This document shows, piece after piece, positions 11,836-25,427 of a stretch of DNA of 40,034 nt (its first letter is position 1; each line of letters opens with the position of its first letter). The DNA comes from a virus. Where the stretch lies: the IMG/VR virus record IMGVR_UViG_3300008625_000739, positions 1 to 40,034 of that record; one strand, written 5' to 3'. A program made the translations under genes and the position numbers. The notes below the pieces were generated by a model. It was not told the DNA's origin and did no database searches. It was given only the letters and a program-made list of their open reading frames with translations.

Positions 11836-12078
11836 TTACTCGAATTCTCCAGCGTCAAACTCTACTTTAATAACGTTGTCTTCAAGTTTTTCTTTTTGTA
11901 ATCTAATGATTTCTTCTTGACAAGTTGCAATATGAGTCAAAAGTACAGCCAAACAATGTTCAAGATCTTGGCAATGTTGCTTGCCTATCCTTAACTCATT
12001 TTGTCCGGTGTGTCTAATTCCGGCAATTTGGTTAAGTAGATTTTCTACAGGGCGCAAATTAAGTTGAGGATTTGGCAT
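11836..12078 (-). CDS. Hypothetical coiled-coil protein (80 aa)
   Basis: MPNPQLNLRPVENLLNQIAG starts a mostly helical protein, with a long C-terminal helix (CLAVLLTHIATCQEEIIRLQ) and an acidic end (KVEFDAGEFE). It contains three cysteines (QHCQDLEHC and ATC). No family recognised. It overlaps the end of the upstream gene by 20 nt. Confidence 0.65.
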   Translation of the reverse strand: MPNPQLNLRPVENLLNQIAGIRHTGQNELRIGKQHCQDLEHCLAVLLTHIATCQEEIIRLQKEKLEDNVIKVEFDAGEFE

Positions 12079-12547
12079 ATCTTAATGCTTCCTTTGCCTT
12101 TTCAATCGTTTTAAACGGGCCTTTATATCCGTATCTATCTAATGTAATAAGTTTAGGACAAAACGCCGATGTCCATCCTATTTTTATAAAGTTAACAATA
12201 TAATATCCGGCACAAAACCAACATTTACTATCCTCTCTTTTATTAAACATCGGAAGTTTTCTTTTAAGATCATATATAACATTATATGCATTCTTAGAAT
12301 TAATTGGATAGTTGTGTACTTCTTCAGATGCTTTTGTTGGTTTATCACTTGCTTTATATTTAATAAAGCGAAGTGGATACTTATCTAACAATGTTTTTTT
12401 AGAATTGAATGCTATCTTTTTGCCGTGTTGCGTAACAACATAGTGAGAGTCTCCTATTCTGTTTAATAAGCCGACACTTTCACCATTTCGTGATAGTATC
12501 CAAAATCTGTCTTTTACTAGTGGTTTTGCTACAGTGTCATCTGTCAT
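12059..12547 (-). CDS. Conserved T4-like phage hypothetical protein (162 aa)
   Basis: The sequence has the layout of a recurrent phage family: an N-terminal beta unit (FWILSRNGESVGLLNRIGDS), a middle region with VYDLKRKLPMF-like text (here NVIYDLKRKLPMFNKR), and a C-terminal segment CWFCAGYYIVNFIKIGWTSA followed by FCPKLITLDRYGYKGPFKT. Related proteins in marine myoviruses are uncharacterised. The gene shares the transcript of the leaderless 90-aa gene just upstream. Confidence 0.7.
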   Translation of the reverse strand: MTDDTVAKPLVKDRFWILSRNGESVGLLNRIGDSHYVVTQHGKKIAFNSKKTLLDKYPLRFIKYKASDKPTKASEEVHNYPINSKNAYNVIYDLKRKLPMFNKREDSKCWFCAGYYIVNFIKIGWTSAFCPKLITLDRYGYKGPFKTIEKAKEALRYAKSST

Positions 12548-12820
12548 TTATCTACCTATGTCCTTGATACAGTCTTTGCTGATAACTTGATATGCTCCTT
12601 TATTATAAGCAGGAGCGATTGTATGATTTGTTGATTTCAATGAATCACGGCACGGGCCCAATGGGATTCGTGTGTCTAATGAAGGATAATTAGGGCTATT
12701 AGTTTCGTAATTGGGAAAGGGATTAACCGTAGAAGTTAATCTTATTTTCTTTTTCCGGCCAAATACCTTTAGACGCTTCTTCCGCGCCGCCCTTACTTGC
12801 CTTTCTTGATACGTGCTCAT
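12548..12820 (-). CDS. Basic hypothetical protein (90 aa)
   Basis: MSTYQERQVRAARKKRLKVF and GRKKKIRL make a very basic N-terminus; the rest is Pro/Asn-rich with little predicted secondary structure (NPFPNYETNSPNYPSLDTRI) and ends HTIAPAYNKGAYQVISKDCI. Such proteins recur in marine T4-like phages. The promoter (12828-12856) ends 7 nt before the ATG and no ribosome-binding site fits, so the transcript is probably leaderless. Confidence 0.75.
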   Translation of the reverse strand: MSTYQERQVRAARKKRLKVFGRKKKIRLTSTVNPFPNYETNSPNYPSLDTRIPLGPCRDSLKSTNHTIAPAYNKGAYQVISKDCIKDIGR

Positions 12821-12827
12821 ATATAAT

Positions 12828-12856
12828 ATTATAATTGAAAAAGTTTATATAGTCAA
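12828..12856 (-). promoter_or_regulatory. Sigma70-like promoter giving a leaderless start
   Basis: Minus strand TTGACT (12856-12851), 17 bp, TATAAT (12833-12828); only 7 nt separate the -10 from the ATG at 12820. Confidence 0.75.
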
Positions 12857-12862
12857 GTGATA

Positions 12863-13108
12863 TTAATCGTCTTTGTTTATATCACCAATATCTACTTTGA
12901 GGTTTATTCTGTATTCGTCCCAGTATTTCTTGTGTGCTTCAGTATGAATTAACTTAGCAAGTTTCGCTTGACGTTCACGATATTCGCCTTGCTTGAGCCA
13001 ATACTCTTCTTCAGTGTATCCACTTTTGTTAACGTTTTCCATGAACTCTCTTTGCTGTTTAATGAGTTCTTCGATTGCTTTTTGCTTTTCAGTTTTTTTG
13101 ATCGTCAT
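12863..13108 (-). CDS. Hypothetical helical protein (81 aa)
   Basis: A highly charged helical sequence (MTIKKTEKQKAIEELIKQQR, YWLKQGEYRERQAKLAKLIH) likely to form a coiled coil, with a short beta end (INLKVDIGDINKDD). It overlaps the upstream gene by 20 nt. No family recognised. Confidence 0.65.
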   Translation of the reverse strand: MTIKKTEKQKAIEELIKQQREFMENVNKSGYTEEEYWLKQGEYRERQAKLAKLIHTEAHKKYWDEYRINLKVDIGDINKDD

Positions 13109-13292
13109 TTAAGTTATCGTTTGCTACTGATAATACAAAATCTTGTATTGTAACATCATCATTGTTTTGGAAATTATCACAATATAAGTCCCAATAATAG
13201 TCCATATACATTACTGAAACTTCTCTTGGCATTTTTTGATAAAAATACCACTTTTCAAATTCTTCTATTTTTTCTTTTATATCTGTAGTCAC
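13089..13292 (-). CDS. Hypothetical acidic protein (67 aa)
   Basis: It starts with GTG, which overlaps the exonuclease stop as GTGA, indicating translational coupling. The sequence TTDIKEKIEEFEKWYFYQKM and VMYMDYYWDLYCDNFQNNDD is acidic and rich in Trp/Tyr. No family recognised; the position suggests co-expression with the exonuclease. Confidence 0.65.
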   Translation of the reverse strand: MTTDIKEKIEEFEKWYFYQKMPREVSVMYMDYYWDLYCDNFQNNDDVTIQDFVLSVANDNLNDDQKN

Positions 13293-14257
13293 TGTGAATA
13301 CCTTGCGTTTAATAAGTCGCTAAATTTGTTTGCTTCTTCGCCTAGTTTAAGTAAATTGTGCTTACCGCAAAATTTAAGAAAGTGTAGTCCAACGTTGCCA
13401 TTGTCTTTTTGGACAATTTCTCCGATGGTTTCGACTATTTCATTACGAATTTCTTCAGGTTGTGCTGTAAGATCAATTAATATACGATTACGCTCATAAT
13501 CATCTTTTACGCGGTGTTCTATTTCGTTATGGTCTATCCATCGCTGTAACATCATATTGTTCCAAACATAACCCTTATTGTGCCTGTCCTCAAATGCTTC
13601 TTTTAACACAGTCTTACGAACACGTGGATAAGCAGTAAACACGTTATCGCTTGGATCACCACGCATACACTTTTCAAACAATAACCATTCTGGATTAGGA
13701 ATCTCTTTGGGCTCTTTAGTTTTCTTATCAATAACCATATTGCCCTTCTTGTCAAAAATGCCTTCGTTGGTTATTAACTGATCCGTAATGCCATTATACT
13801 GTTTAACATTAGTATCTAGCAGTTGATAAAAATCACTGTCACTGCTAATGATAAAATGTTCGTCATCTGGATGTCCTTGTATAAATCCAGCAATAAGATC
13901 ATCCGCTTCAAGTGTTGGATTTTGAATTACAGTACAATTGGTTTTGCTTCTAAGAAATGCAGTAAAATCTTCAAACACTTCCCAAAACAATTCATCTTCT
14001 TCCTGTTCTTTTTCAGTAAGTGCTTGTCGTGCTACTACTCTATTCTTTTTGTATGGCTCATAAAAGGACTTGCGCCAACTTCTGCCTTCCAAACAAAATA
14101 TAACATGGTCAGCATTAAACTCACGCCATACTTTGGCCACGGATCCAAGAGTTACATGGATAGCAAGACCTAGTTTAGTGTCAGTATCAACACTTTTGGC
14201 AACTACGTGCCTTGCTCTAAAAAACATATTAGCGGTGTCTATTAATAGATATTTCAT
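13289..14257 (-). CDS. 5'-3' exonuclease / flap endonuclease (T4 RNase H-like)
   Basis: 322 residues. The FEN/5'-3' exonuclease acidic motifs are clear: LLIDTANMFF at the start (first metal-binding Asp), TLEADDLIAGF, ISSDSDFYQLL, and KCMRGDPSDNVFT, which is the helix-hairpin-helix entry seen in the family. Such enzymes remove RNA primers and flaps on the lagging strand and supply a nuclease for phage replication. The length matches T4 RNase H (about 305 residues). It is coupled to a small disrupted ORF upstream (TAA next to ATG) and to two small genes downstream. Confidence 0.9.
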   Translation of the reverse strand: MKYLLIDTANMFFRARHVVAKSVDTDTKLGLAIHVTLGSVAKVWREFNADHVIFCLEGRSWRKSFYEPYKKNRVVARQALTEKEQEEDELFWEVFEDFTAFLRSKTNCTVIQNPTLEADDLIAGFIQGHPDDEHFIISSDSDFYQLLDTNVKQYNGITDQLITNEGIFDKKGNMVIDKKTKEPKEIPNPEWLLFEKCMRGDPSDNVFTAYPRVRKTVLKEAFEDRHNKGYVWNNMMLQRWIDHNEIEHRVKDDYERNRILIDLTAQPEEIRNEIVETIGEIVQKDNGNVGLHFLKFCGKHNLLKLGEEANKFSDLLNARYSQ

Positions 14258-15807: not shown

Positions 15808-16691
15808 TATGTTCCCCATGCATTACCAAACAGATCAGAGTGTAGTCTTGGACTATAACGTAATCCATGTTTCATAACTGCTTCTGCGACAATGCGTGTA
15901 TTCTTTTTATAATCATCATATAAACCACCTACAGGCATACAATAAACAGGACAGTCAACGCCTGCTTCTTTATATACTGCAATGGCTTTTTCTACTTCAT
16001 CCATGCTTTCTTCGCTATCAATAACAAATTTAAAATACATGTCTGAGAAAGGCATTTTATAATATGCGGCCGCCACATCAGGCTTAATTGCTTTTCCCCA
16101 TGGTTCGCCGCTTGCTGATAGTTTAGGAGAGCACGACCAGGTAACATATGGTCTGATAGGAGTCCTGTAATTAGCAAAATCACCGGTCCAATTTCGCCAG
16201 TCGTAAAACCATTCAAAAATTTTGTCAGTTAAATTTCTAGTAGTATTAGTCTCGAATGTAACATTTTTTAAATCCTGCATACGATCATGTGCAAATAAAT
16301 CAGGATATATTTTTTGCCACATCATAGGCTCACCGCCCGTAATAACTAAATGTATGTCTTGCCCATTGGGCATTATCCAACTGCCATTGGGCGTTTTTGC
16401 CAATAGATCATCTACTAATTTGTCTAAGTCTACATCTGTTGCTAAATATTTAAATCGTGGATCCCAACTTGCATAACTGTCACATCCTGTGCTAACTAAT
16501 GGCAAATCATCAAAGTGTGTATAATCAGCGGCAAAAACGCCGAGTCGCTCTTTGCTTAACTCACCGCGTGGCATTCCAAAACCTTGGCATTTTAAATTAC
16601 AACCAAACAGTCGCAAGAAAACAGACGGCACGCCTGTAAACTTACCCTCTCCTTGTAAACTATAAAATATTTCTGTATATCTAATCTTCAT
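15807..16691 (-). CDS. queE: 7-carboxy-7-deazaguanine synthase, QueE
   Basis: 294 residues from the ATG at 16691 (AAGGA upstream). QueE is the radical SAM enzyme that turns 6-carboxytetrahydropterin into 7-carboxy-7-deazaguanine. The start KIRYTEIFYSLQGEGKFTGV with S-x-Q-G-E-G is diagnostic, RLFGCNLKC carries Cys31 and Cys35, and TGCDSYASWD carries the third Cys (Cys70), so the cluster-binding loop is C-x3-C-x34-C, expanded compared with C-x3-C-x2-C. LVITGGEPMMW is the SAM-binding GGEP motif and ETNTTRNL follows. It is in an operon with QueD and an amidinotransferase. Confidence 0.9.
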   Translation of the reverse strand: MKIRYTEIFYSLQGEGKFTGVPSVFLRLFGCNLKCQGFGMPRGELSKERLGVFAADYTHFDDLPLVSTGCDSYASWDPRFKYLATDVDLDKLVDDLLAKTPNGSWIMPNGQDIHLVITGGEPMMWQKIYPDLFAHDRMQDLKNVTFETNTTRNLTDKIFEWFYDWRNWTGDFANYRTPIRPYVTWSCSPKLSASGEPWGKAIKPDVAAAYYKMPFSDMYFKFVIDSEESMDEVEKAIAVYKEAGVDCPVYCMPVGGLYDDYKKNTRIVAEAVMKHGLRYSPRLHSDLFGNAWGT

Positions 16692-17007
16692 CGGGTTTAT
16701 TTCCTTGCCATTTATCGCCAAATAATTTATGTAGTGGTATTGCTTGATGTTCTTCCTTAGTCATACCCCAACTAGGCCCCTTTAACATTCGCTGTATTTT
16801 AATTTGCATATCGTCGTATTCTTCTTTCCATTCTTGCTTTTCTTCTTCTAATCTTTTTGGAAGTTTATCTAATATTATAACAATTTCTTTAAGATTGTCA
16901 AGTGTATTACGTTCAGTTCGTGATATGTATACACTGTGTCGAGGTATTTTAAAATTATCGAAGCATTTGTCTATTAGGTCTTTTGCCTTATTAATGTCAT
17001 CTTGCAT
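16681..17007 (-). CDS. Hypothetical coiled-coil protein (108 aa)
   Basis: The ATG at 17007 is preferred over an upstream TTG because GGAGG lies 11 nt before it. The first helix MQDDINKAKDLIDKCFDNFK and the long charged stretch IVIILDKLPKRLEEEKQEWK followed by EEYDDMQIKIQRML suggest a coiled coil; then GPSWGMTKEEHQAIPLHKLF. It overlaps both the amidinotransferase end and the QueE start. No family recognised; position places it in the deazaguanine operon. Confidence 0.7.
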   Translation of the reverse strand: MQDDINKAKDLIDKCFDNFKIPRHSVYISRTERNTLDNLKEIVIILDKLPKRLEEEKQEWKEEYDDMQIKIQRMLKGPSWGMTKEEHQAIPLHKLFGDKWQGNKPDED

Positions 17008-18199
17008 AACTCTCAATGCCTCCTTCCCTGTGTATGTCTAACGTTAAGCAATGCAATCCACCATCCCAAAAGAATCTATGCCTAAACGGAGTTACTATAG
17101 GCTCTACATTATGCTTTCTAAACCATTTAAATAATTCTTTATTTTCGGTTAGGCACAGTACAGTTTCAGGATTTACCATCAATACATTAACGTCCCAAAT
17201 TGTTTCTTCACAAAATCCTACCCACTCGCTAAACCATTTATCTACGTAGTCAATAAGTTCGTCGTTGTGTTCTTCGCCTGGAATCCACCATTTTCCTTGT
17301 ACTTTTTCTCTAACTTCTAAGAATGGTGACATATTAGACCATTGGGCGTCTGGCAAGTAGAATACGTCCCAATTTGGAAAATACTTTTTAAACTGTAGTG
17401 CTTCGCCATTTGATATAAATGCGCCGGGTTTTATTGGTGCGTATATACCATCCGAATGCCCGTCGTTAAAAGCAGTTATAATATTATAGTTGTCTTTAAA
17501 ATGATTTTTAAAGTATTTGTAAACATGCGGCCGCAATCCATCTAATATTATTGTATCCCCAAGCCGCACAATATTTGGTCCCTCATTCAAATAATCGTCT
17601 TTCCACGGGAATTCAATAATATTTGCGCCTTGTTCTTTTAATTCTTTGAATAATGGTTCATAAAATATAGCAAGGGCTCGGCTGGCACCTCCCTGTGGAT
17701 ATAATGGATTAATAGTATTTATACAAGCCGGGTTTACTTCTGGCATGCTGTACGGTCTTAACTTATAAAAAGTTTCTCCTACTATGATTTGATCGTCCCG
17801 TGGAAATAATGGCGGTCGGGTGAGTGCGCCTGGATCTGCATATATATCGTAGTTTGCTAAAAAACTTTCGACACCTTTCCTATCAATTAATCTTGGAAAA
17901 TAATTTAATACTTCATCAATAATAATGTTTAAGTTTTCATCAACACAAGCTCCACCAACTTTGTATATATTATATACTTGATCAAAATCAAAAAGTTTCG
18001 GGCGTTTAACAGTTACGCCATAACTTTCTAATACTTCTTTAATGTTCTCTAAATCTTCTATGGTTTCTTCAGTAATTTGTTGCAGAATATTTTTTACTTT
18101 AATATTATCAACGTAGTCAAAGAACTCCGGACGATAGCAATCGCCTAACCAACATTCTTTTAGTGGTTGGAATCCTGTGTTACAATTGATTACACCCAT
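16997..18199 (-). CDS. Arginine:X amidinotransferase (AGAT-like)
   Basis: 400 residues of the pentein fold. Family members move the amidino group of arginine to an amine (glycine, inosamine or others). Seen: NCNTGFQPLKECWLGD at the start; His248 and Asp250 in DGHSDGIYAPIKPGAFIS, matching the H-x-D-x region of glycine amidinotransferase; and the catalytic Cys384 in GGLHCLTLDIHREG, matching the vertebrate GGGFHCWTCD motif. Length is near that of the AGAT core. It lies between QueE and QueD with overlapping ends, so it is in the deazaguanine operon. The acceptor is unknown: glycine is possible, but an amine linked to the modified base is an attractive alternative. Class-II glutamine amidotransferases that make archaeosine are unrelated. 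Confidence 0.85.
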   Translation of the reverse strand: MGVINCNTGFQPLKECWLGDCYRPEFFDYVDNIKVKNILQQITEETIEDLENIKEVLESYGVTVKRPKLFDFDQVYNIYKVGGACVDENLNIIIDEVLNYFPRLIDRKGVESFLANYDIYADPGALTRPPLFPRDDQIIVGETFYKLRPYSMPEVNPACINTINPLYPQGGASRALAIFYEPLFKELKEQGANIIEFPWKDDYLNEGPNIVRLGDTIILDGLRPHVYKYFKNHFKDNYNIITAFNDGHSDGIYAPIKPGAFISNGEALQFKKYFPNWDVFYLPDAQWSNMSPFLEVREKVQGKWWIPGEEHNDELIDYVDKWFSEWVGFCEETIWDVNVLMVNPETVLCLTENKELFKWFRKHNVEPIVTPFRHRFFWDGGLHCLTLDIHREGGIESYAR

Positions 18200-18666
18200 C
18201 CATTAAACCCTGCTTCGGGGTTATGATAGGTTGAACTGTTCTTGTCATTTTCTCTTGCTTCTACACTAATAACCCATGCTCTGCCACCTGTTCTTTCGCG
18301 TAACCATCCATCAGCATAATTACAGATACGCATAGCAGTGCCTTCCATACCTGGCCCTTCTTCTTGTACAATTAATTTACATACACCCGCATCGTGTAGC
18401 ATTTGGAATGTTTCCATATATGGGTCATCGTGATCAATAACAAACGTATGGTCATAATTCTCTTCTAACCATCTCTTTAGTTCTTTCAAGTCACTATAAT
18501 CAACAAGAAATCCTTCTTTTGTCATAGTGTGTGCGCCAAACGTAAAATGAAAACTACGGCTATAGCCGTGTATCATAGCGCAGTTTCCGTCATGCTTGTG
18601 TTGTCTATGAGCACACGGAAAGTTATAAAATGTTTTTGTAGATGTAAATTCAGGTACTCCGCTCAT
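18190..18666 (-). CDS. queD: 6-carboxytetrahydropterin synthase-like protein, QueD
   Basis: 158 residues, T-fold. QueD converts dihydroneopterin triphosphate to 6-carboxytetrahydropterin. Zinc-site region: FPCAHRQHKHDGNCAMIHGY, with the first His in CAH, the catalytic Cys in GNCAM and His in IHGY. The usual HGH has become HGY, so one zinc ligand may be missing or replaced. VDYSDLKELKRWLEENYDHT matches the D-[FY]-x-x-L-K segment and the conserved DH, and VEAREN is the terminal glutamate region. AAGGAG precedes the ATG. It is followed by the amidinotransferase with an overlap. Confidence 0.85.
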   Translation of the reverse strand: MSGVPEFTSTKTFYNFPCAHRQHKHDGNCAMIHGYSRSFHFTFGAHTMTKEGFLVDYSDLKELKRWLEENYDHTFVIDHDDPYMETFQMLHDAGVCKLIVQEEGPGMEGTAMRICNYADGWLRERTGGRAWVISVEARENDKNSSTYHNPEAGFNGWV

Positions 18667-18808: not shown

Positions 18809-19351
18809 TTACCAATTTTTATCACTCCACCAGTTTTCCCACGGAAAAACAATCCACGAGGGATCTTCAATTTTATTAATCACTAATGAGGTGTAAGAGA
18901 TTTCTGTAAATCTACTCTCCTCATTATTAACTAGCGAAGCAAAACGAACATTAGAGCCTACAACTTTGTCCCAAGACTTAACACCCGGTATCGGCGCATT
19001 CATCCAATCATTTACAATCCAATCAAATGTAGCACCAGAATCATTTATATCATCAACAACAAGTATATTTTTAGGTTCGATTACTTCTTCATGACTAAAA
19101 CTAGTTTTAGTTATGCCTGACGCGTCTGCCGCCATTTCTAAACTAGATTGTAGATTGTGTCCATCTCGTAATCTAACATCTAATGTATGTAACGGTGTTT
19201 CTAAATAATGACTCAACATTGTAGCAGGAATTAGTCCTCCCCTTGTAATACCTACAATGTATTCAGGCCGCCAATTACCAGCATAAATCTGTTGAGTAAT
19301 ATCTAAAACTTGCGACTTAATGTCTTGTGTATTTAGATAGATCATTTTCAT
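18809..19351 (-). CDS. Purine phosphoribosyltransferase-like protein
   Basis: 180 residues, type I phosphoribosyltransferase fold. The PRPP-binding loop is ILVVDDINDSGATFD, and YIVGITRGGLIPATMLSHYL supplies the preceding RGG motif. The size and layout fit xanthine/hypoxanthine/guanine phosphoribosyltransferases, which join a base to PRPP. Substrate specificity cannot be read from the sequence. Located between FolE and the QueD operon, it may recycle guanine for GTP, the FolE substrate, or handle deazaguanine bases. AAGGAG precedes the ATG. Confidence 0.8.
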   Translation of the reverse strand: MKMIYLNTQDIKSQVLDITQQIYAGNWRPEYIVGITRGGLIPATMLSHYLETPLHTLDVRLRDGHNLQSSLEMAADASGITKTSFSHEEVIEPKNILVVDDINDSGATFDWIVNDWMNAPIPGVKSWDKVVGSNVRFASLVNNEESRFTEISYTSLVINKIEDPSWIVFPWENWWSDKNW

Positions 19352-19368: not shown

Positions 19369-20055
19369 CTATCGCGGAGCAAATTCTTGCTGAAGTTTGA
19401 TATTGTCAAAGAACTCTTTTTTAGTAGAAGCATCTTCTTTAAATGATCCTTTAAGCACTGTTGTTTGTGTTAGACTAGAGTGTGCCATGACACCCCTATT
19501 TTCTACGCAACCATGCGTTGCTTGTACGTAAACACCTACATTACTAGAACCTGTTGCTTTAATAATTTCATGTGCTATGTCGTTGGCAAGTTCTTCTTGT
19601 AGTGTTCCCCGTCTGGCACACCATTGTGCTATACGTGTATATTTGGATAATCCTATAAGTGTGTCTGCCGCGATAATGCCAATATATGCAACTCCGGTTA
19701 CTGGTTGAAAATGATGGGAGCAAACGCTACGTATTTCACTTCTTACAACAAGCATGCCTTCGTAACCATCCTCTACATGATTAGGAAATGCGGTTGCATT
19801 GGGCATGTTATCAAAACGGCCGCTCATAAGTTCTCTTATATACATTTTTGCTAAACGACGCGGCGTGTCAATAGAGTTAGGATCACTATGCCTATCAATA
19901 AGCAGAGTGTCCAATACTCCTTCAAACTTTTCCGTTAGTTCATCAATGAGCAGATCTTTTTCTTCTTCTTCGATAAATTCTGATATATTGTCTCCTGCCC
20001 AAAAACGTCCACCGTGTTCTAGCATTCTGTTTCTAATTGTTTTACTAATGCTCAT
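19369..20055 (-). CDS. folE: GTP cyclohydrolase I, FolE
   Basis: 228 residues from the ATG at 20055, which has GGAG 6 nt upstream; four codons further back a TTG is less likely. It makes dihydroneopterin triphosphate from GTP, the first step of the deazaguanine pathway. Zinc and active-site motifs are VCSHHFQPVTG and THGCVENRG, with LIGLSKYTRIAQWCARR, PRRLAKMYIRELMSG and NDIAHEIIKATGSSNVGVYV typical of FolE. A consensus promoter (20077-20105) starts the FolE / phosphoribosyltransferase / QueD / amidinotransferase / QueE unit. Confidence 0.95.
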   Translation of the reverse strand: MSISKTIRNRMLEHGGRFWAGDNISEFIEEEEKDLLIDELTEKFEGVLDTLLIDRHSDPNSIDTPRRLAKMYIRELMSGRFDNMPNATAFPNHVEDGYEGMLVVRSEIRSVCSHHFQPVTGVAYIGIIAADTLIGLSKYTRIAQWCARRGTLQEELANDIAHEIIKATGSSNVGVYVQATHGCVENRGVMAHSSLTQTTVLKGSFKEDASTKKEFFDNIKLQQEFAPR

Positions 20056-20076
20056 ATATTTCTCCAAGTACTATAT

Positions 20077-20112: not shown

Positions 20113-21312
20113 TTAAAATTTAGACTCCGCAACATGGTCTCTATATCTATTTCCATCACGGCGCCACTGTTCTCCGTTGCCCTCCATAATATCACATATG
20201 CGATCAATAGTACCATTCGTCCAATCGGATATTCTTCCCATGTTAAAACTTGGCATTCTTAGAGCAGTATCAATTTTTTCAATAGCAGAGTGCATACTCC
20301 AAGGAATATACAAACGATCTGCATCATTAGCAAAAGTTTCAGGGAAACTGCGATATGCAGGATATACTACATTACACCCTAGTGTATCCGCTTCACTTAC
20401 AGTATTGCTTACCCAATCTTGTAGCGCACAATTGAATAATACCTTACTGTCGTTAACGATATTATAATAATCATTCTTATTTAGGTCAGTATAAATTTTT
20501 AGAACTCCTTCTGCTTGTAATTTCAATGCACGATCTAAATATTTTTGATTGTTACTGCGTAAAGGCCCGCCGCTTAGAACAGCGAACTCAACATCAGTTA
20601 TACTATCTACATATTGATTTTGGTGCTTTAGATGGCCAGTTACTGTTTCAACAATATCCATAAAGAAGTCAGGTTGTTTTTCTTGATCAAATCTTGCCGC
20701 AAATACAACACGATTAGATCTTTCACTCCACTTCTTTACCTTATTTCCTACTCTTTCAAGAACTTCACTTTTGCCAAAACTCAATCCTGATATGTTGTAT
20801 ATAGGAGCAGTCCAGTTAGCAATACGCATATGGGCAACCATTTCTTCATTAGTAGCCAATACTGTAGCAAACTCATTAACCATTTGCTCATACAAACTCA
20901 TCCACTTGGACATACCCCATACATGGACAAAGTCATCAGGATCTACCGCCTGGGCAAGACAACGGACATAAACTTTGGGGCGTTGATTTTCGGGAATCTG
21001 GTTCATAATATACGGAAGTGATTCTATACCAGGTTGAAACATATCCTCAAAGAAGATAGCATCCTCCCCTGTCACAGTTCCATCACGCATCATTTGGACT
21101 AGGTTCATCATTTGGCTCATACCAAAATAACTGCGTCCATGTGCGTCTAACACTTGTCCTACAGATATTGCTTTAGTATTGTCAATAGTCTCACCGGGCA
21201 CAACTATATAGTCTATGCCTCTGCGTTTAAATACACGCTCACTCCATTCTTGTAATTGTAATGTATATCTTCCTTCATAAGGCTCAAGTCCCATGTATAT
21301 TAATTTACGCAT
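20113..21312 (-). CDS. GT-B-like glycosyltransferase
   Basis: 399 residues. The start KLIYMGLEPYEGRYTLQLQE is the Rossmann-type entry of GT-B transferases; VVFAARFDQEKQPDFFMDIV opens the second Rossmann domain; and VSEADTLGCNVVYPAYRSFP is the E-x7-E-like donor-binding region. The acceptor is unknown: phage glycosyltransferases modify DNA, host surface sugars or virion proteins, and the neighbouring deazaguanine genes make DNA decoration possible but unproven. AAAGGA precedes the ATG. Confidence 0.75.
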   Translation of the reverse strand: MRKLIYMGLEPYEGRYTLQLQEWSERVFKRRGIDYIVVPGETIDNTKAISVGQVLDAHGRSYFGMSQMMNLVQMMRDGTVTGEDAIFFEDMFQPGIESLPYIMNQIPENQRPKVYVRCLAQAVDPDDFVHVWGMSKWMSLYEQMVNEFATVLATNEEMVAHMRIANWTAPIYNISGLSFGKSEVLERVGNKVKKWSERSNRVVFAARFDQEKQPDFFMDIVETVTGHLKHQNQYVDSITDVEFAVLSGGPLRSNNQKYLDRALKLQAEGVLKIYTDLNKNDYYNIVNDSKVLFNCALQDWVSNTVSEADTLGCNVVYPAYRSFPETFANDADRLYIPWSMHSAIEKIDTALRMPSFNMGRISDWTNGTIDRICDIMEGNGEQWRRDGNRYRDHVAESKF

Positions 21313-21401: not shown

Positions 21402-21550
21402 CTAAACAGTAACTCCATCTATGTTCGTTGTCTTAAGACCAGTTACATACCATTCAGGTGCAGGTCTTGCTTTGTTCCAGGCGGCAAATCTAGATTTTTC
21501 GCCCAAATAAAAATTTCTATTTGCATCTCTGCAAGTATAAACCTATTCAT
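21402..21550 (-). pseudogene. Small ORF broken by a one-base frameshift
   Basis: The ATG at 21550 overlaps the cupin stop as ATGA, a normal coupling signal, and gives MNRF. That frame soon becomes unlike a protein and stops after 35 codons. One base out of frame the DNA reads YTCRDANRNFYLGEKSRFAA then WNKARPAPEWYVTGLKTTNI DGVTV, a convincing small protein that ends at 21402. One extra T in the TTT run would join them into 49 residues. Real frameshift, sequencing error or recoding site. Confidence 0.5.
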
Positions 21551-21960
21551 TGATAAAGCCTTTCTATATCAACCTCATCACAAAATTCTCCATATTGTAT
21601 TTCTACAATATGCAATGGTGTATAAGAAGGGTTCATGATTTGATGCCATTCTCCGGCTGGCACGTGGTAAGATTCATGCTTATTTAATATAATAGTTCTA
21701 GCATCACGTTCTATAAAATTATGCCGATTGCTAAGATCTCCTTTGCTACAAGATTCAGTATAGTTTGGTGCTAATATAAGTCTTGCAACACCAGATTCTA
21801 CAATCCAAAACTCATTTCTATGTTCATGACGTTGGAAACTCATACAGGAGTTAGGATTTACGACTAGCTCCTTAACCTTCATACTTTTGAAGTTAGCAAG
21901 AACATCATAAACTCCCCAATCTCGTTGGATATCAAATTTATTGTTGTCTTTGTTCTGCAT
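21547..21960 (-). CDS. Cupin, mannose-6-phosphate isomerase type II-like
   Basis: 137 residues from the ATG at 21960, which overlaps the preceding gene by 23 nt. The cupin barrel includes NSCMSFQRHEHRNEFWIVES (metal-binding H-x-H with a Glu), ILNKHESYHVPAGEWHQIMN (second motif with His) and PLHIVEIQYGEFCDE, the usual ending of type II phosphomannose isomerases such as the C-terminal part of ManC. It is a stand-alone cupin; it could isomerise a sugar phosphate or an unrelated small molecule. It sits near the glycosyltransferase, which would suit nucleotide-sugar supply. Confidence 0.8.
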   Translation of the reverse strand: MQNKDNNKFDIQRDWGVYDVLANFKSMKVKELVVNPNSCMSFQRHEHRNEFWIVESGVARLILAPNYTESCSKGDLSNRHNFIERDARTIILNKHESYHVPAGEWHQIMNPSYTPLHIVEIQYGEFCDEVDIERLYQ

Positions 21961-22159
21961 TGCTTTTTTTATAAGGTTTTCTAAAATGTGGATACCCTGG
22001 CCAATATCTTGCCTTGCCAGTCTCCTTCCAGCGTAAAAAGTCGCTATATGGACTCTTTTCCTTATATAAATGTGCCTCATCAAAGACTCGTCCAAATTCT
22101 CGACAGAAGTCACGATATGCATCCAAATCATCAAAGATTTGTTTCACTGCTTTTTTCAT
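21938..22159 (-). CDS. Conserved phage hypothetical protein (73 aa)
   Basis: MKKAVKQIFDDLDAYRDFCR EFGRVFDEAHLYKEKSPYSD is of a type common in marine T4-like phages, with a charged helical N-terminus and a basic, aromatic C-terminus (YWPGYPHFRKPYKKSNAEQR). Function unknown. It is more convincing than the alternative upstream extension of the cupin on the same DNA. Confidence 0.7.
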   Translation of the reverse strand: MKKAVKQIFDDLDAYRDFCREFGRVFDEAHLYKEKSPYSDFLRWKETGKARYWPGYPHFRKPYKKSNAEQRQQ

Positions 22160-22180: not shown

Positions 22181-22636
22181 TTAGTTAATGTTTTTATAAG
22201 CGATTACAGGATAGACGCAATGGCATCCATTCTCGTCATCTTCGCTTACGTCTATTTGGACTTCTCTGCCTTTATAGCGTTCGTTGATTGCTAGGTAGAG
22301 ATCGTCTGCTATCATTTCACAGGACTTGTAGTCTAATTGTAAAGTGCCTGTGGAATAAAGATTTTCCAACCAACGTTTAAATTGAATAAATTCAATATCT
22401 CTGTCGTCGTGGAATACTTGTATAGTAACCTTAAAGTGGAATGTGTGGCGATGTGGATATCCGAGAAAGGATACATCATACTCATCACCAGTTGCTAATG
22501 CGGGATCTTCTAATGCGGCCGGGTATTTGTGTATACCCTCTTTTTGAAATTTAACCCAAATCATTTTGGGCATTTGTTGAACTTTTTCTGTTCTCAGTTG
22601 ACGTCTATGATCGTCTATGTTGAATACTTCGTTCAT
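22181..22636 (-). CDS. T-fold-like protein, distant QueD relative
   Basis: 151 residues. GYPHRHTFHFKVTIQVFHDD matches the H-x-H-x-[YF]-x-[VL]-x-V strand of QueD/PTPS proteins, FIQFKRWLENLY matches the D-F-x-x-L-K helix, DYKSCEMIADDLYLAINERY matches the P-T-S-E-x-[IL]-A helix (here SCEMIA), and VQIDVSEDDENGCHCVY matches the V-x-[VL]-x-E-T-x-x-[NG] ending. The N-terminal zinc His and the catalytic Cys of QueD are not evident. I infer a non-canonical T-fold enzyme or partner subunit. It lies next to the ferredoxin, within the region that carries DpdA. Confidence 0.55.
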   Translation of the reverse strand: MNEVFNIDDHRRQLRTEKVQQMPKMIWVKFQKEGIHKYPAALEDPALATGDEYDVSFLGYPHRHTFHFKVTIQVFHDDRDIEFIQFKRWLENLYSTGTLQLDYKSCEMIADDLYLAINERYKGREVQIDVSEDDENGCHCVYPVIAYKNIN

Positions 22637-23936: not shown

Positions 23937-25427
23937 TTAGTTAAATAGTTCGTTGAACGCCTTATCTGCGCTATATTTTTCTTTTCTTACTTCTTCTACT
24001 TTGCCCATTGGTTCTATACCAAATTCATCGGCCATAGCATCTGCTTTGAATTCGCCTTGTATTCTAGCAAACCACTTACTATACTTATGTATTTCTGCCA
24101 TGGCATTATTATAATCTTTATGGGCAAATATATCTGTAATAACATCAGAGATAGTTGCGCCATTGGGTGCTACTAGACTAGGGGGATATATTCCTTCGTC
24201 ATAGCACTCATTTGCTCGCTGTGTTGCTAGGATATGCATATAAACGTTATGCCCCATTTGTATTGCATAACTAAAACTATCCCAACTAGTTTTTCCTTCC
24301 TTGCCTATTTTATTTAAATCGCCCGGACCATATTGGCAAACATCCTTCATTTCAATCATTTCTGTAATAACACTGGGTTCCCACGCGACACCCGGATGTT
24401 CAATGTTATAATCATATATTCTGCTATCAGTTGAATACTTCTTGTCGTCGATAGCCTTAATCATTCTATAAGTCCATCCGCCCTTGCGTAGATGATCTGT
24501 ATGTATGCTTGTATAGATTGTACCATATGCTGTTGCTAGAAACGGCGAAGCACAGTCATATGAAAGTATAATATCTGGACTCGTTGTATCTCTTACTGTT
24601 CGTTGTAGTGCGGTTAGCATAATACTCCATAATAATTCACCTGTACCAAGGAAGTGTATCCATTCACAATCTTGTAGCAACCCGTCCCTACGCAATGTAA
24701 CAAAACGTTTCAACGCAATCTCAATATCTTTTTTGTTCCAACCCGCCATAGCAAAACATTCAAAGTTTGCTTTTTCACCTGTGCTATATGGTTTTACTGC
24801 TTCATACCATTTCTCTGCTTGATCCCAGTTATTACCTTGCAGAACATTTAAAAACTTTGTCGCACCCGGTGTCCTTGCTTGAGCAAAGAAGTCATTATTA
24901 TTTAATGTGCCTTGTAAACACTTTTGCCAAGTATCTAATCCGTGCTTTGTTCCTGCGGCCCAATCAACGCCCATAGTAGGCAGGTCCAACACCATAGAGT
25001 AATCGAAGGTACCTTCTAAAAAACGCAAAACCTTTTCACGAGTTTTGTCTGTTTTTTCATCTACTCCGTATGGTTCTAGCCATTGTCCTTCCCACACACC
25101 TTTAGAAATCTGAAAGCCTCCGCTATCACCTAGTAAAATAGTATTAGCGTTATCTCTATTACGAATCATATCCTCTTTGGGATCATGCTTATCAAGATTT
25201 ATATTAGCATGGCCTGCAGAATACAATGCCCACGGATACTTAAAGTATCCTTCATCCATATTGAGAAAGTTTAATCCTTCAACGCCATTGGTAAAGCGAG
25301 AAGGAATTCTGTCAGCAGGAATGTATTCTTCATAACGTTGCTTGCCAATATATGAGGCATAAAAAGAACTAATTGCTGGCAAATATATTGCGTAATCTTT
25401 CTGTGTTTTCCTAAAGTCTGATTGCAT
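23937..25427 (-). CDS. dpdA: DpdA-like DNA tRNA-guanine transglycosylase
   Basis: 496 residues. TGT-fold motifs: LLGDSGGFQI (Asp101, Gly, Gly, Phe, Gln106), SMVLDLPTMGVD, FLGTGELLWSI (259-269) and SYDCASPFLATAYG with Asp291 as the likely nucleophile equivalent (DCV in TGT). The length and the DCASP variant fit the phage DpdA group, which exchange guanine for 7-deazaguanine bases in DNA rather than tRNA. The RNA-binding C-terminal zinc motif of bacterial TGT is not evident. It is coupled to the sliding clamp upstream (TAATG), a hint that modification follows replication. Ligand could be preQ0, preQ1 or a derivative. Confidence 0.85.
   Translation of the reverse strand: MQSDFRKTQKDYAIYLPAISSFYASYIGKQRYEEYIPADRIPSRFTNGVEGLNFLNMDEGYFKYPWALYSAGHANINLDKHDPKEDMIRNRDNANTILLGDSGGFQISKGVWEGQWLEPYGVDEKTDKTREKVLRFLEGTFDYSMVLDLPTMGVDWAAGTKHGLDTWQKCLQGTLNNNDFFAQARTPGATKFLNVLQGNNWDQAEKWYEAVKPYSTGEKANFECFAMAGWNKKDIEIALKRFVTLRRDGLLQDCEWIHFLGTGELLWSIMLTALQRTVRDTTSPDIILSYDCASPFLATAYGTIYTSIHTDHLRKGGWTYRMIKAIDDKKYSTDSRIYDYNIEHPGVAWEPSVITEMIEMKDVCQYGPGDLNKIGKEGKTSWDSFSYAIQMGHNVYMHILATQRANECYDEGIYPPSLVAPNGATISDVITDIFAHKDYNNAMAEIHKYSKWFARIQGEFKADAMADEFGIEPMGKVEEVRKEKYSADKAFNELFN

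What the first reader, a model, noticed from the sequence alone, without database searches (positions are those of the whole stretch)
16997..18199. Arginine amidinotransferase inside a QueE-QueD-FolE operon with DpdA nearby
The catalytic Cys384 and His248 match glycine/inosamine amidinotransferases, and the gene overlaps its neighbours in the deazaguanine operon. Known phage decoration of 7-deazaguanine (such as archaeosine-type) uses glutamine amidotransferase-related enzymes, which this is not. An amidinotransferase could convert an amine such as preQ1's aminomethyl group to a guanidinomethyl group, a hypothetical DNA base, or act on another amine. This is speculative, but the linkage is striking.
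Basis: partly seen in the sequence, partly recalled or inferred. Interest (0 to 1): 0.75.

Follow-up and report, generated by a model that had tools for sequence, protein, structure and literature searches.

The report
Phage amidinotransferase amid deazaguanine genes
An uncultured phage carries a real amidinotransferase-like enzyme between two genes for making modified guanine, but wider comparison suggests it more likely decorates an amino sugar or another small amine than the guanine base proposed at first.

Summary
The gene at 16997-18199 (minus) encodes a 400-aa amidinotransferase-fold protein (model pLDDT 84; Z 28 to AGAT/SxtG, 23 or less to arginine deiminases). Asp135, His248, Asp250 and Cys384 are invariant in 57 chosen relatives. 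It overlaps QueD, also in 9 of 9 records of its own lineage, and is under purifying selection. The proposed guanidinomethyl-preQ1 is weakly supported: QueC is undetected in 24 of 26 related records and QueF in 26 of 28. The gene belongs to a large, mostly phage-borne family (at least 538 IMG/VR relatives) that mostly sits elsewhere. In loci sampled by DpdA or glycosyltransferase, it lies near deazaguanine genes no more often than its density in long records predicts (10 seen, 6.9-10.4 expected). The constant partner of the DpdA-like gene is the glycosyltransferase at 20113-21312 (63 of 80 and 77 of 80 loci), with sugar-nucleotide genes around. In two loci the order is glycosyltransferase, epimerase, amidinotransferase, short StrS-type aminotransferase, FolE. 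Best reading: it transfers an amidino group to an amine, most likely an amino sugar. The acceptor of the window's own copy, and whether any sugar ends on DNA, are untested.

The parts
16997..18199 (-). amidinotransferase-like protein, 400 aa (Asp135, His248-x-Asp250, Cys384; Glu206 at the AGAT Asp254 position)
18190..18666 (-). QueD-like 6-carboxytetrahydropterin synthase; HGY in 7 of 7 aligned where phage 9g QueD has HGH
16681..17016 (-). orf111, unknown, between amidinotransferase and QueE
   Evidence: no Pfam or PHROG family; dN/dS 0.28 against L003
15807..16721 (-). QueE-like radical SAM 7-carboxy-7-deazaguanine synthase
   Evidence: phrog_2076 3.3e-55
18809..19351 (-). phosphoribosyltransferase
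   Evidence: PF00156 4.7e-13
19369..20067 (-). GTP cyclohydrolase I (FolE)
   Evidence: PF01227 1.8e-40
20113..21312 (-). glycosyltransferase-like protein (Glycos_transf_1 type), constant neighbour of the DpdA-like gene
   Evidence: PF00534 1e-4, below cut-off; homologue in phage BUCT-ZZ01 (71% identity) passes PF13692 and PF00534 cut-offs; association
21547..22134 (-). phosphomannose-isomerase-type cupin
   Evidence: PF01050 7.3e-27; TIGR01479 1.9e-23, below its cut-off
22181..22636 (-). orf151 (phrog_17812), unknown, conserved beside the DpdA-like gene
   Evidence: 66 of 80 DpdA-anchored and 65 of 80 GT-anchored loci
23937..25427 (-). DpdA-like (TGT-like) protein
   Evidence: motifs and weak alignment to E. 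coli Tgt; PA5oct homologue 36.8%

Best explanation
The gene makes an active, Cys-dependent amidinotransferase-like enzyme of a mostly phage-borne branch. It takes the amidino group of arginine onto Cys384 (His248 as acid/base, Asp135 and Asp250 holding the guanidinium) and passes it to an amine. The amine is most likely an amino group on a phage-made sugar, as StrB acts after StrS in streptomycin synthesis (recalled). Its place between QueD and QueE reflects a modular modification island that holds deazaguanine genes, a glycosyltransferase and sugar genes side by side; it does not act on preQ1. Shown: fold, residues, selection, context. Inferred: arginine as donor, transfer rather than hydrolysis, sugar as acceptor, and where the sugar goes.
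For: Fold: model pLDDT 84.2, pTM 0.88; AGAT Z 28.1 (rmsd 3.5, 287 aligned), SxtG 28.0 (3.5, 286), StrB 27.6 (2.9, 280), HsvA 27.4 (3.2, 281), against 23.2 (5.2, 294) or less for deiminases. Residues 57 of 57 chosen rows. dN/dS 0.08-0.23 in the 7 of 10 unsaturated pairs. Sugar context: in L051 and L065 the order is glycosyltransferase, epimerase, amidinotransferase, StrS/DegT-type aminotransferase, FolE, with frames that overlap at mechanical starts. In four long records (G040, G041, G043, G049) one copy lies 3.9-5.5 kb from a DegT/StrS-family aminotransferase and 5.1-7.4 kb from an epimerase, with a carbamoyltransferase-type gene in the same region (Pfam-tested for carbamoyltransferase in G040 only). 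The window's own phage (G001) has such an aminotransferase, epimerase, PIG-L deacetylase and carbamoyltransferase 21.6-29.5 kb away. Aminotransferase found in 5 of 5 lineage records tested, epimerase in 4 of 5. Near the window gene: glycosyltransferase and phosphomannose-isomerase-type cupin.
Against: Sugar genes lie within 3 kb of the amidinotransferase in a minority of 83 loci: aminotransferase 3, carbamoyltransferase 3, epimerase 3. The commoner flank genes are unknown proteins: DUF6875-like in 29 loci, ATE_C-like in 28, DUF6614 in 23. The aminotransferase of L051 and L065 is short (221 aa) and matches only parts of the 360-position family, so its activity is unsure; none of the aminotransferases reaches an NCBIfam cut-off. 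In the window's clade none is adjacent. The Asp254 position of AGAT is Glu here and Asn, Ser or Thr in 37 of 57, so the chemistry may differ. The four long records share one conserved cluster and are not independent. The sugar genes could serve a surface glycan.
Confidence: 0.37

Rival explanations
1. The enzyme makes a soluble guanidino compound (from glycine, lysine, a polyamine or another amine) as an ordinary metabolic gene of the phage; the deazaguanine neighbourhood is coincidental.
For: Glycine amidinotransferase is already listed among viral metabolic genes. The family is abundant, sits in many unrelated places and reaches three strong copies in one record. It is not enriched near deazaguanine genes.
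Against: The QueD overlap is kept in 9 of 9 lineage records. A partner such as a guanidinoacetate methyltransferase was not searched for; no acceptor pocket could be tested.
Confidence: 0.3
2. One reading: guanidinylation of a 7-deazaguanine amine such as preQ1, before or after insertion into DNA.
For: Overlap with QueD, QueE close by, DpdA-like gene at 5.7 kb; amidinotransferases of at least three separate branches lie beside deazaguanine genes; a queuosine-precursor-type transporter (Vut_1) occurs in L003 and 7 other loci.
Against: QueC not found in 24 of 26 and QueF not in 26 of 28 records. 17 of 18 strong copies outside the window's clade in long deazaguanine records lie 27 kb or more from mapped deazaguanine genes (G028 and G029 look like near-copies). 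PA5oct, Vibrio 2.275.O and BUCT-ZZ01, which carry deazaguanine genes, have no copy.
Confidence: 0.08
3. It acts on a protein or on arginine itself (deiminase- or dihydrolase-like host takeover).
For: Same superfamily as deiminases and peptidylarginine deiminases (Z about 18.6-23.2); diverged copies in one genome; Asp254 position variable.
Against: Sequence and fold stand nearest to amidinotransferases.
Confidence: 0.15
4. The protein is catalytically dead.
For: Asp254 equivalent not conserved.
Against: Cys, His and two Asp invariant in 57 of 57 chosen rows; purifying selection.
Confidence: 0.07

Closest known systems
StrB / AGAT / HsvA / SxtG amidinotransferases
   Same: Fold over 280-288 residues, Z 27-28; equivalents of AGAT Asp170, His303, Asp305 and Cys407
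   Different: 21-23% identity in the structural alignments; AGAT Asp254 and Arg322 equivalents not kept (roles of these residues recalled); His374, Arg375 and Asp379, invariant in the 57 rows, read Asn, Ala and Gly in AGAT
Putative glycine amidinotransferase in the radical-SAM module of Campylobacter phages CP220/CPt10 (PMC2853527, passages seen)
   Same: Amidinotransferase in a phage that also has a QueD-like gene, about 7.6 kb away in CPt10; PMC6884629 (passage) cites Campylobacter phages with deazaguanine DNA, but I did not see whether CPt10 is one
   Different: Distant branch, weak match; among radical SAM genes, not between QueD and QueE
Phage 7-deazaguanine DNA modification (PMC6884629, passages seen)
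   Same: FolE, QueD, QueE and a DpdA-like gene
   Different: No QueC or QueF found in the window's lineage; a glycosyltransferase is the constant companion instead
Carboxymethylcytosine handle for hypermodification (PMC12783734, passages seen)
   Same: A carboxyl-bearing base as handle would be the analogue of carboxy-deazaguanine here (my analogy)
   Different: Different base, ligase and chemistry; the word amidinotransferase does not occur

Membership tests
AGAT/StrB amidinotransferase | Pentein fold nearest to known amidinotransferases | tested here: met
   Z 27.4-28.1 for AGAT, SxtG, StrB, HsvA
AGAT/StrB amidinotransferase | Cys407, His303, Asp305, Asp170 equivalents | tested here: met
   Cys384, His248, Asp250, Asp135, 57 of 57 chosen rows
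AGAT/StrB amidinotransferase | Asp254 equivalent (recalled as part of the catalytic triad) | tested here: not met
   Glu206 in the window; column N 19, S 13, D 12, T 5, E 2, Q 2 of 57. So not filed as a member of AGAT/StrB proper, only as working like one
AGAT/StrB amidinotransferase | Arginine donor and amine acceptor | not testable with these tools
   needs enzyme assay
Phage 7-deazaguanine DNA modification | FolE, QueD, QueE | tested here: met
   QueD with an altered HGY motif
Phage 7-deazaguanine DNA modification | DpdA transglycosylase | tested here: inconclusive
   motifs only; no family hit; no alignment to 9g DpdA
Phage 7-deazaguanine DNA modification | QueC, making preQ0 | tested here: not met
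   no match in 24 of 26 records; G044 has a partial hit over the cut-off (25.4 bits, positions 128-208 of 210), G022 one below it; none in the 4 window-lineage records or the 8 records. Records may be incomplete
Phage 7-deazaguanine DNA modification | Gat, ArcS or other amidotransferase | not tested
   only QueF was searched
Phage 7-deazaguanine DNA modification | Modified base in virion DNA | not testable with these tools
   needs LC-MS
StrS/StrB-type guanidino-sugar pathway | Amino-sugar-type aminotransferase in the same genome | tested here: met
   G001 45222-46223, PF01041; 5 of 5 lineage records tested
StrS/StrB-type guanidino-sugar pathway | Aminotransferase adjacent to the amidinotransferase | tested here: not met
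   about 22 kb apart in G001; within 3 kb in L051, L065, L073 of 83 loci

The most novel reading that the evidence does not exclude
These phages carry a hypermodified guanine in which a 7-deazaguanine made without QueC bears a sugar put on by the DpdA-linked glycosyltransferase, and in some lineages that sugar is an amino sugar guanidinylated by this enzyme: a cationic glycosylated deazaguanine DNA.
Probability: 0.1. Interest if true: 0.9.

Novelty: new variant of a known kind. Interest (0 to 1): 0.5.

Why it matters
If the island works as read, an abundant group of uncultured phages would glycosylate 7-deazaguanine. None of the titles and abstract starts listed in my searches names that (open-access library only, most of those papers not opened). 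It would join the deazaguanine and sugar-hypermodification worlds, point to named test phages (BUCT-ZZ01; PA5oct-type), and give the large phage amidinotransferase family, so far filed as glycine amidinotransferase, a testable substrate.

Tried and rejected
Operon overlap as evidence of function: rejected, since 18 of 51 same-strand neighbours in the window overlap. Enrichment near deazaguanine genes: not found. In 157 loci (3 window-clade loci dropped) 10 copies lie within 1.5 kb of a cluster gene against 6.9-10.4 expected (P 0.16 and 0.59). The two densities use 18 strong, or 27 strong-plus-weak, copies in 41 records; the 27 was my own count from the rows. Flanks were searched with a richer model than whole records, and only genes within 10 kb of the anchor were mapped.

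A comparison sample anchored on DNA polymerase gave 7 contigs over 50 kb among 80 and was dropped. Whether DpdA and amidinotransferase co-occur more than expected is therefore untested. Seen: DpdA in 17 of 41 amidinotransferase records (5 of them window clade), and in 7 of the 11 unrelated records of 100 kb or more.

First fold from 5 sequences was poor (pLDDT 37) and not used. orf151 as a second QueD: by eye it has a zinc-like HKYP...HRH pattern, but profile comparison does not support it (probability 23.5%; 2.7%; PDB nothing relevant). BUCT-ZZ01 shows no DpdA-like match (31-kb stretch, whole collection), which counts against glycosyltransferase and DpdA always going together.

Rows left out before counts: copies under 280 or over 520 aa; 28 or so of the 85 distinct copies not taken into A6, by my choice; the deazaguanine label of 19 loci was set by hand. 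My first confidence for the best reading was 0.40; I lowered it to 0.37 on rechecking because the aminotransferase of L051 and L065 is short.

Full report
What is there. The window is a 40,034-base virus record. Its first-reader gene is an ATG frame of 400 codons at 16997-18199 minus. A protein-identical copy lies in a 178,943-base contig, L002/G001. Around it, on the same strand, are QueD-like (10-nt overlap), orf111, QueE-like, a phosphoribosyltransferase, FolE, a glycosyltransferase-like protein, a phosphomannose-isomerase-type cupin, orf151, a ferredoxin-like protein, a ClpP-like protease and a DpdA-like protein.

What the protein is. Alone it has no Pfam or NCBIfam match at E 0.01 and one unnamed PHROG (phrog_25854, 3e-14). 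phmmer finds HsvA, SxtG, StrB and AGAT; a 57-row profile finds AGAT at 3e-24. The AlphaFold model (pLDDT 84.2, pTM 0.88) aligns to AGAT, SxtG, StrB and HsvA at Z 27.4-28.1 (280-287 residues, rmsd 2.9-3.5) and to arginine deiminases at 23.2 or less. Asp135, His248, Asp250 and Cys384 are present in all 57 rows, which I chose from 85 distinct copies; 11 of 12 further divergent copies keep them and one, cut by its contig end, does not show them. The position of AGAT Asp254 is Glu in the window and Asn 19, Ser 13, Asp 12, Thr 5, Glu 2, Gln 2 of 57. dN/dS is 0.08-0.23 in 7 of 10 pairs, 3 being saturated. So it is a selected, probably active enzyme that works like an amidinotransferase; I do not file it as AGAT or StrB proper.

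How widely it occurs. The window's clade (10 loci, 14, several being near-copies) keeps the QueD overlap, and 9 of 9 lineage records searched whole have the gene, three of them with further copies. Of 83 amidinotransferase loci, 19 have deazaguanine genes in the flanks by my labelling; 3 of these are window clade and some are near-copies. Many contigs are short, so 19 is a lower bound. The commonest other flank genes are a DUF6875-like protein (29 loci), an ATE_C-like protein (28) and a DUF6614 protein (23) (the first two are below Pfam cut-offs). On a tree of 85 copies the deazaguanine-neighbour label needs 10 changes, at least 7 forced by well-supported branches, against 19.7 for shuffled labels: several branches have reached such loci.

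Is it tied to deazaguanine? In 44 long deazaguanine records 19 have a match, some weak. Of 18 strong copies outside the window clade, 17 lie 27 kb or more from the nearest mapped deazaguanine gene and 1 lies 7 kb away (G028 and G029 look like near-copies). A richer model adds a divergent subgroup, with Asp at the 254 position, near FolE or PRT in 8 loci, which speaks for a link. Overall 10 copies within 1.5 kb of the cluster compare with 6.9-10.4 expected from density. So nearness is real in several lineages but not more frequent than the family's abundance predicts.

Why not preQ1. QueC (PF06508) gives no match in 8 of 8 close records and in 24 of 26 of a wider set that overlaps it; G044 has a partial hit over the cut-off and G022 one below it. 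QueF (PF14489) gives none in 26 of 28; one hit is Vibrio phage 2.275.O, where QueF is annotated, and one, below cut-off, falls by coordinates in a FolE-like frame of G004. Records may be incomplete and the host could supply preQ0 or preQ1; a Vut_1 transporter lies in L003 and 7 other amidinotransferase loci but in only 2 of 80 and 3 of 80 of the anchored samples. With FolE, QueD and QueE alone the expected product is 7-carboxy-7-deazaguanine (pathway in PMC6884629 passages). Other amidotransferases (Gat, ArcS) were not searched.

What the island looks like. The constant partner of the DpdA-like gene is the glycosyltransferase: 63 of 80 DpdA-anchored loci have it, and 77 of 80 glycosyltransferase-anchored loci have DpdA. 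Both lie side by side in Pseudomonas phage PA5oct (the glycosyltransferase there is only 20% identical). The glycosyltransferase is also with FolE, QueD and QueE in Synechococcus phage BUCT-ZZ01 at 71% identity, where it passes Pfam cut-offs; no DpdA-like match was found there. By my cluster model an epimerase-type gene is in 76 of 80 glycosyltransferase-anchored and 39 of 80 DpdA-anchored loci. DegT/StrS-type aminotransferase is in 14 and 27 of 80, cytidylyltransferase in 29 and 31, a phosphomannomutase-type protein in 24 and 17, UDP-sugar dehydrogenase types in up to 8 and 34 (DpdA- and glycosyltransferase-anchored).

The sugar acceptor. In L051 and L065 the frames run glycosyltransferase, epimerase, amidinotransferase, aminotransferase, FolE, overlapping at mechanical starts; that aminotransferase is short, 221 aa in both. 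In G040, G041, G043 and G049 a copy lies 3.9-5.5 kb from a full-length DegT/StrS-family aminotransferase and 5.1-7.4 kb from an epimerase, with a carbamoyltransferase-type gene in the region. The window's phage has aminotransferase, epimerase, PIG-L deacetylase and carbamoyltransferase 21.6-29.5 kb from the gene. Against this, such genes are within 3 kb in only 3 (aminotransferase), 3 (carbamoyltransferase) and 3 (epimerase) of 83 loci. I hold the amino-sugar reading at 0.37 and a plain small-amine role at 0.3.

Known before. Glycine amidinotransferase is already named among viral metabolic genes (PMC8226683 table passage; PMC10653327 passage); PMC11360552 (passages) discusses creatine synthesis, chiefly GAMT. 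A putative amidinotransferase in an exchangeable radical-SAM module of Campylobacter phages was described in 2010 (PMC2853527 passages). In PMC6884629 the word occurs once, in a reference title on archaeal tRNA. Searches pairing amidinotransferase with deazaguanine, Campylobacter phage or hypermodification, and DpdA with glycosyltransferase, listed no title or abstract start proposing this link. PMC8306585 was seen in listings only; Cui 2023 was not held and was seen only as a reference.

Noticed in passing
window 20113-21312 and 23937-25427; L268: A glycosyltransferase is the constant partner of the DpdA-like gene (63 of 80 and 77 of 80 loci), also side by side in Pseudomonas phage PA5oct; glycosylated deazaguanine DNA would be new to me.
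   Followed up: partly
window 18190-18666: The QueD-like protein reads HGY where phage 9g QueD reads HGH (7 of 7 aligned), so a zinc ligand appears lost.
   Followed up: partly
window 22181-22636: orf151 (phrog_17812), unknown, stays near the DpdA-like gene in 66 of 80 and 65 of 80 loci.
   Followed up: partly
L254 8782-9315: A protein of about 170-200 aa without Pfam match is near the DpdA-like gene in 70 of 80 and 72 of 80 loci, yet no match was seen in the flanks of the window's own lineage.
   Followed up: partly
L003; L098 5797-6444: Vut_1 (queuosine-precursor-type) transporter gene in the deazaguanine region of 8 amidinotransferase loci.
   Followed up: no
L031, L036, L087, L093 and others: A recurring phage cassette: DUF6875-like, ATE_C-like, amidinotransferase, DUF6614; function unknown.
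   Followed up: partly
L018 (marine virus AG-345-D19): An amidinotransferase near a carbamoyltransferase-type frame and, by eye only, a sulfotransferase-like frame.
   Followed up: no
L268 (PA5oct) 12004-13626: A DpdA-like gene annotated as hypothetical protein in 11 Pseudomonas phage records of 284-288 kb.
   Followed up: partly
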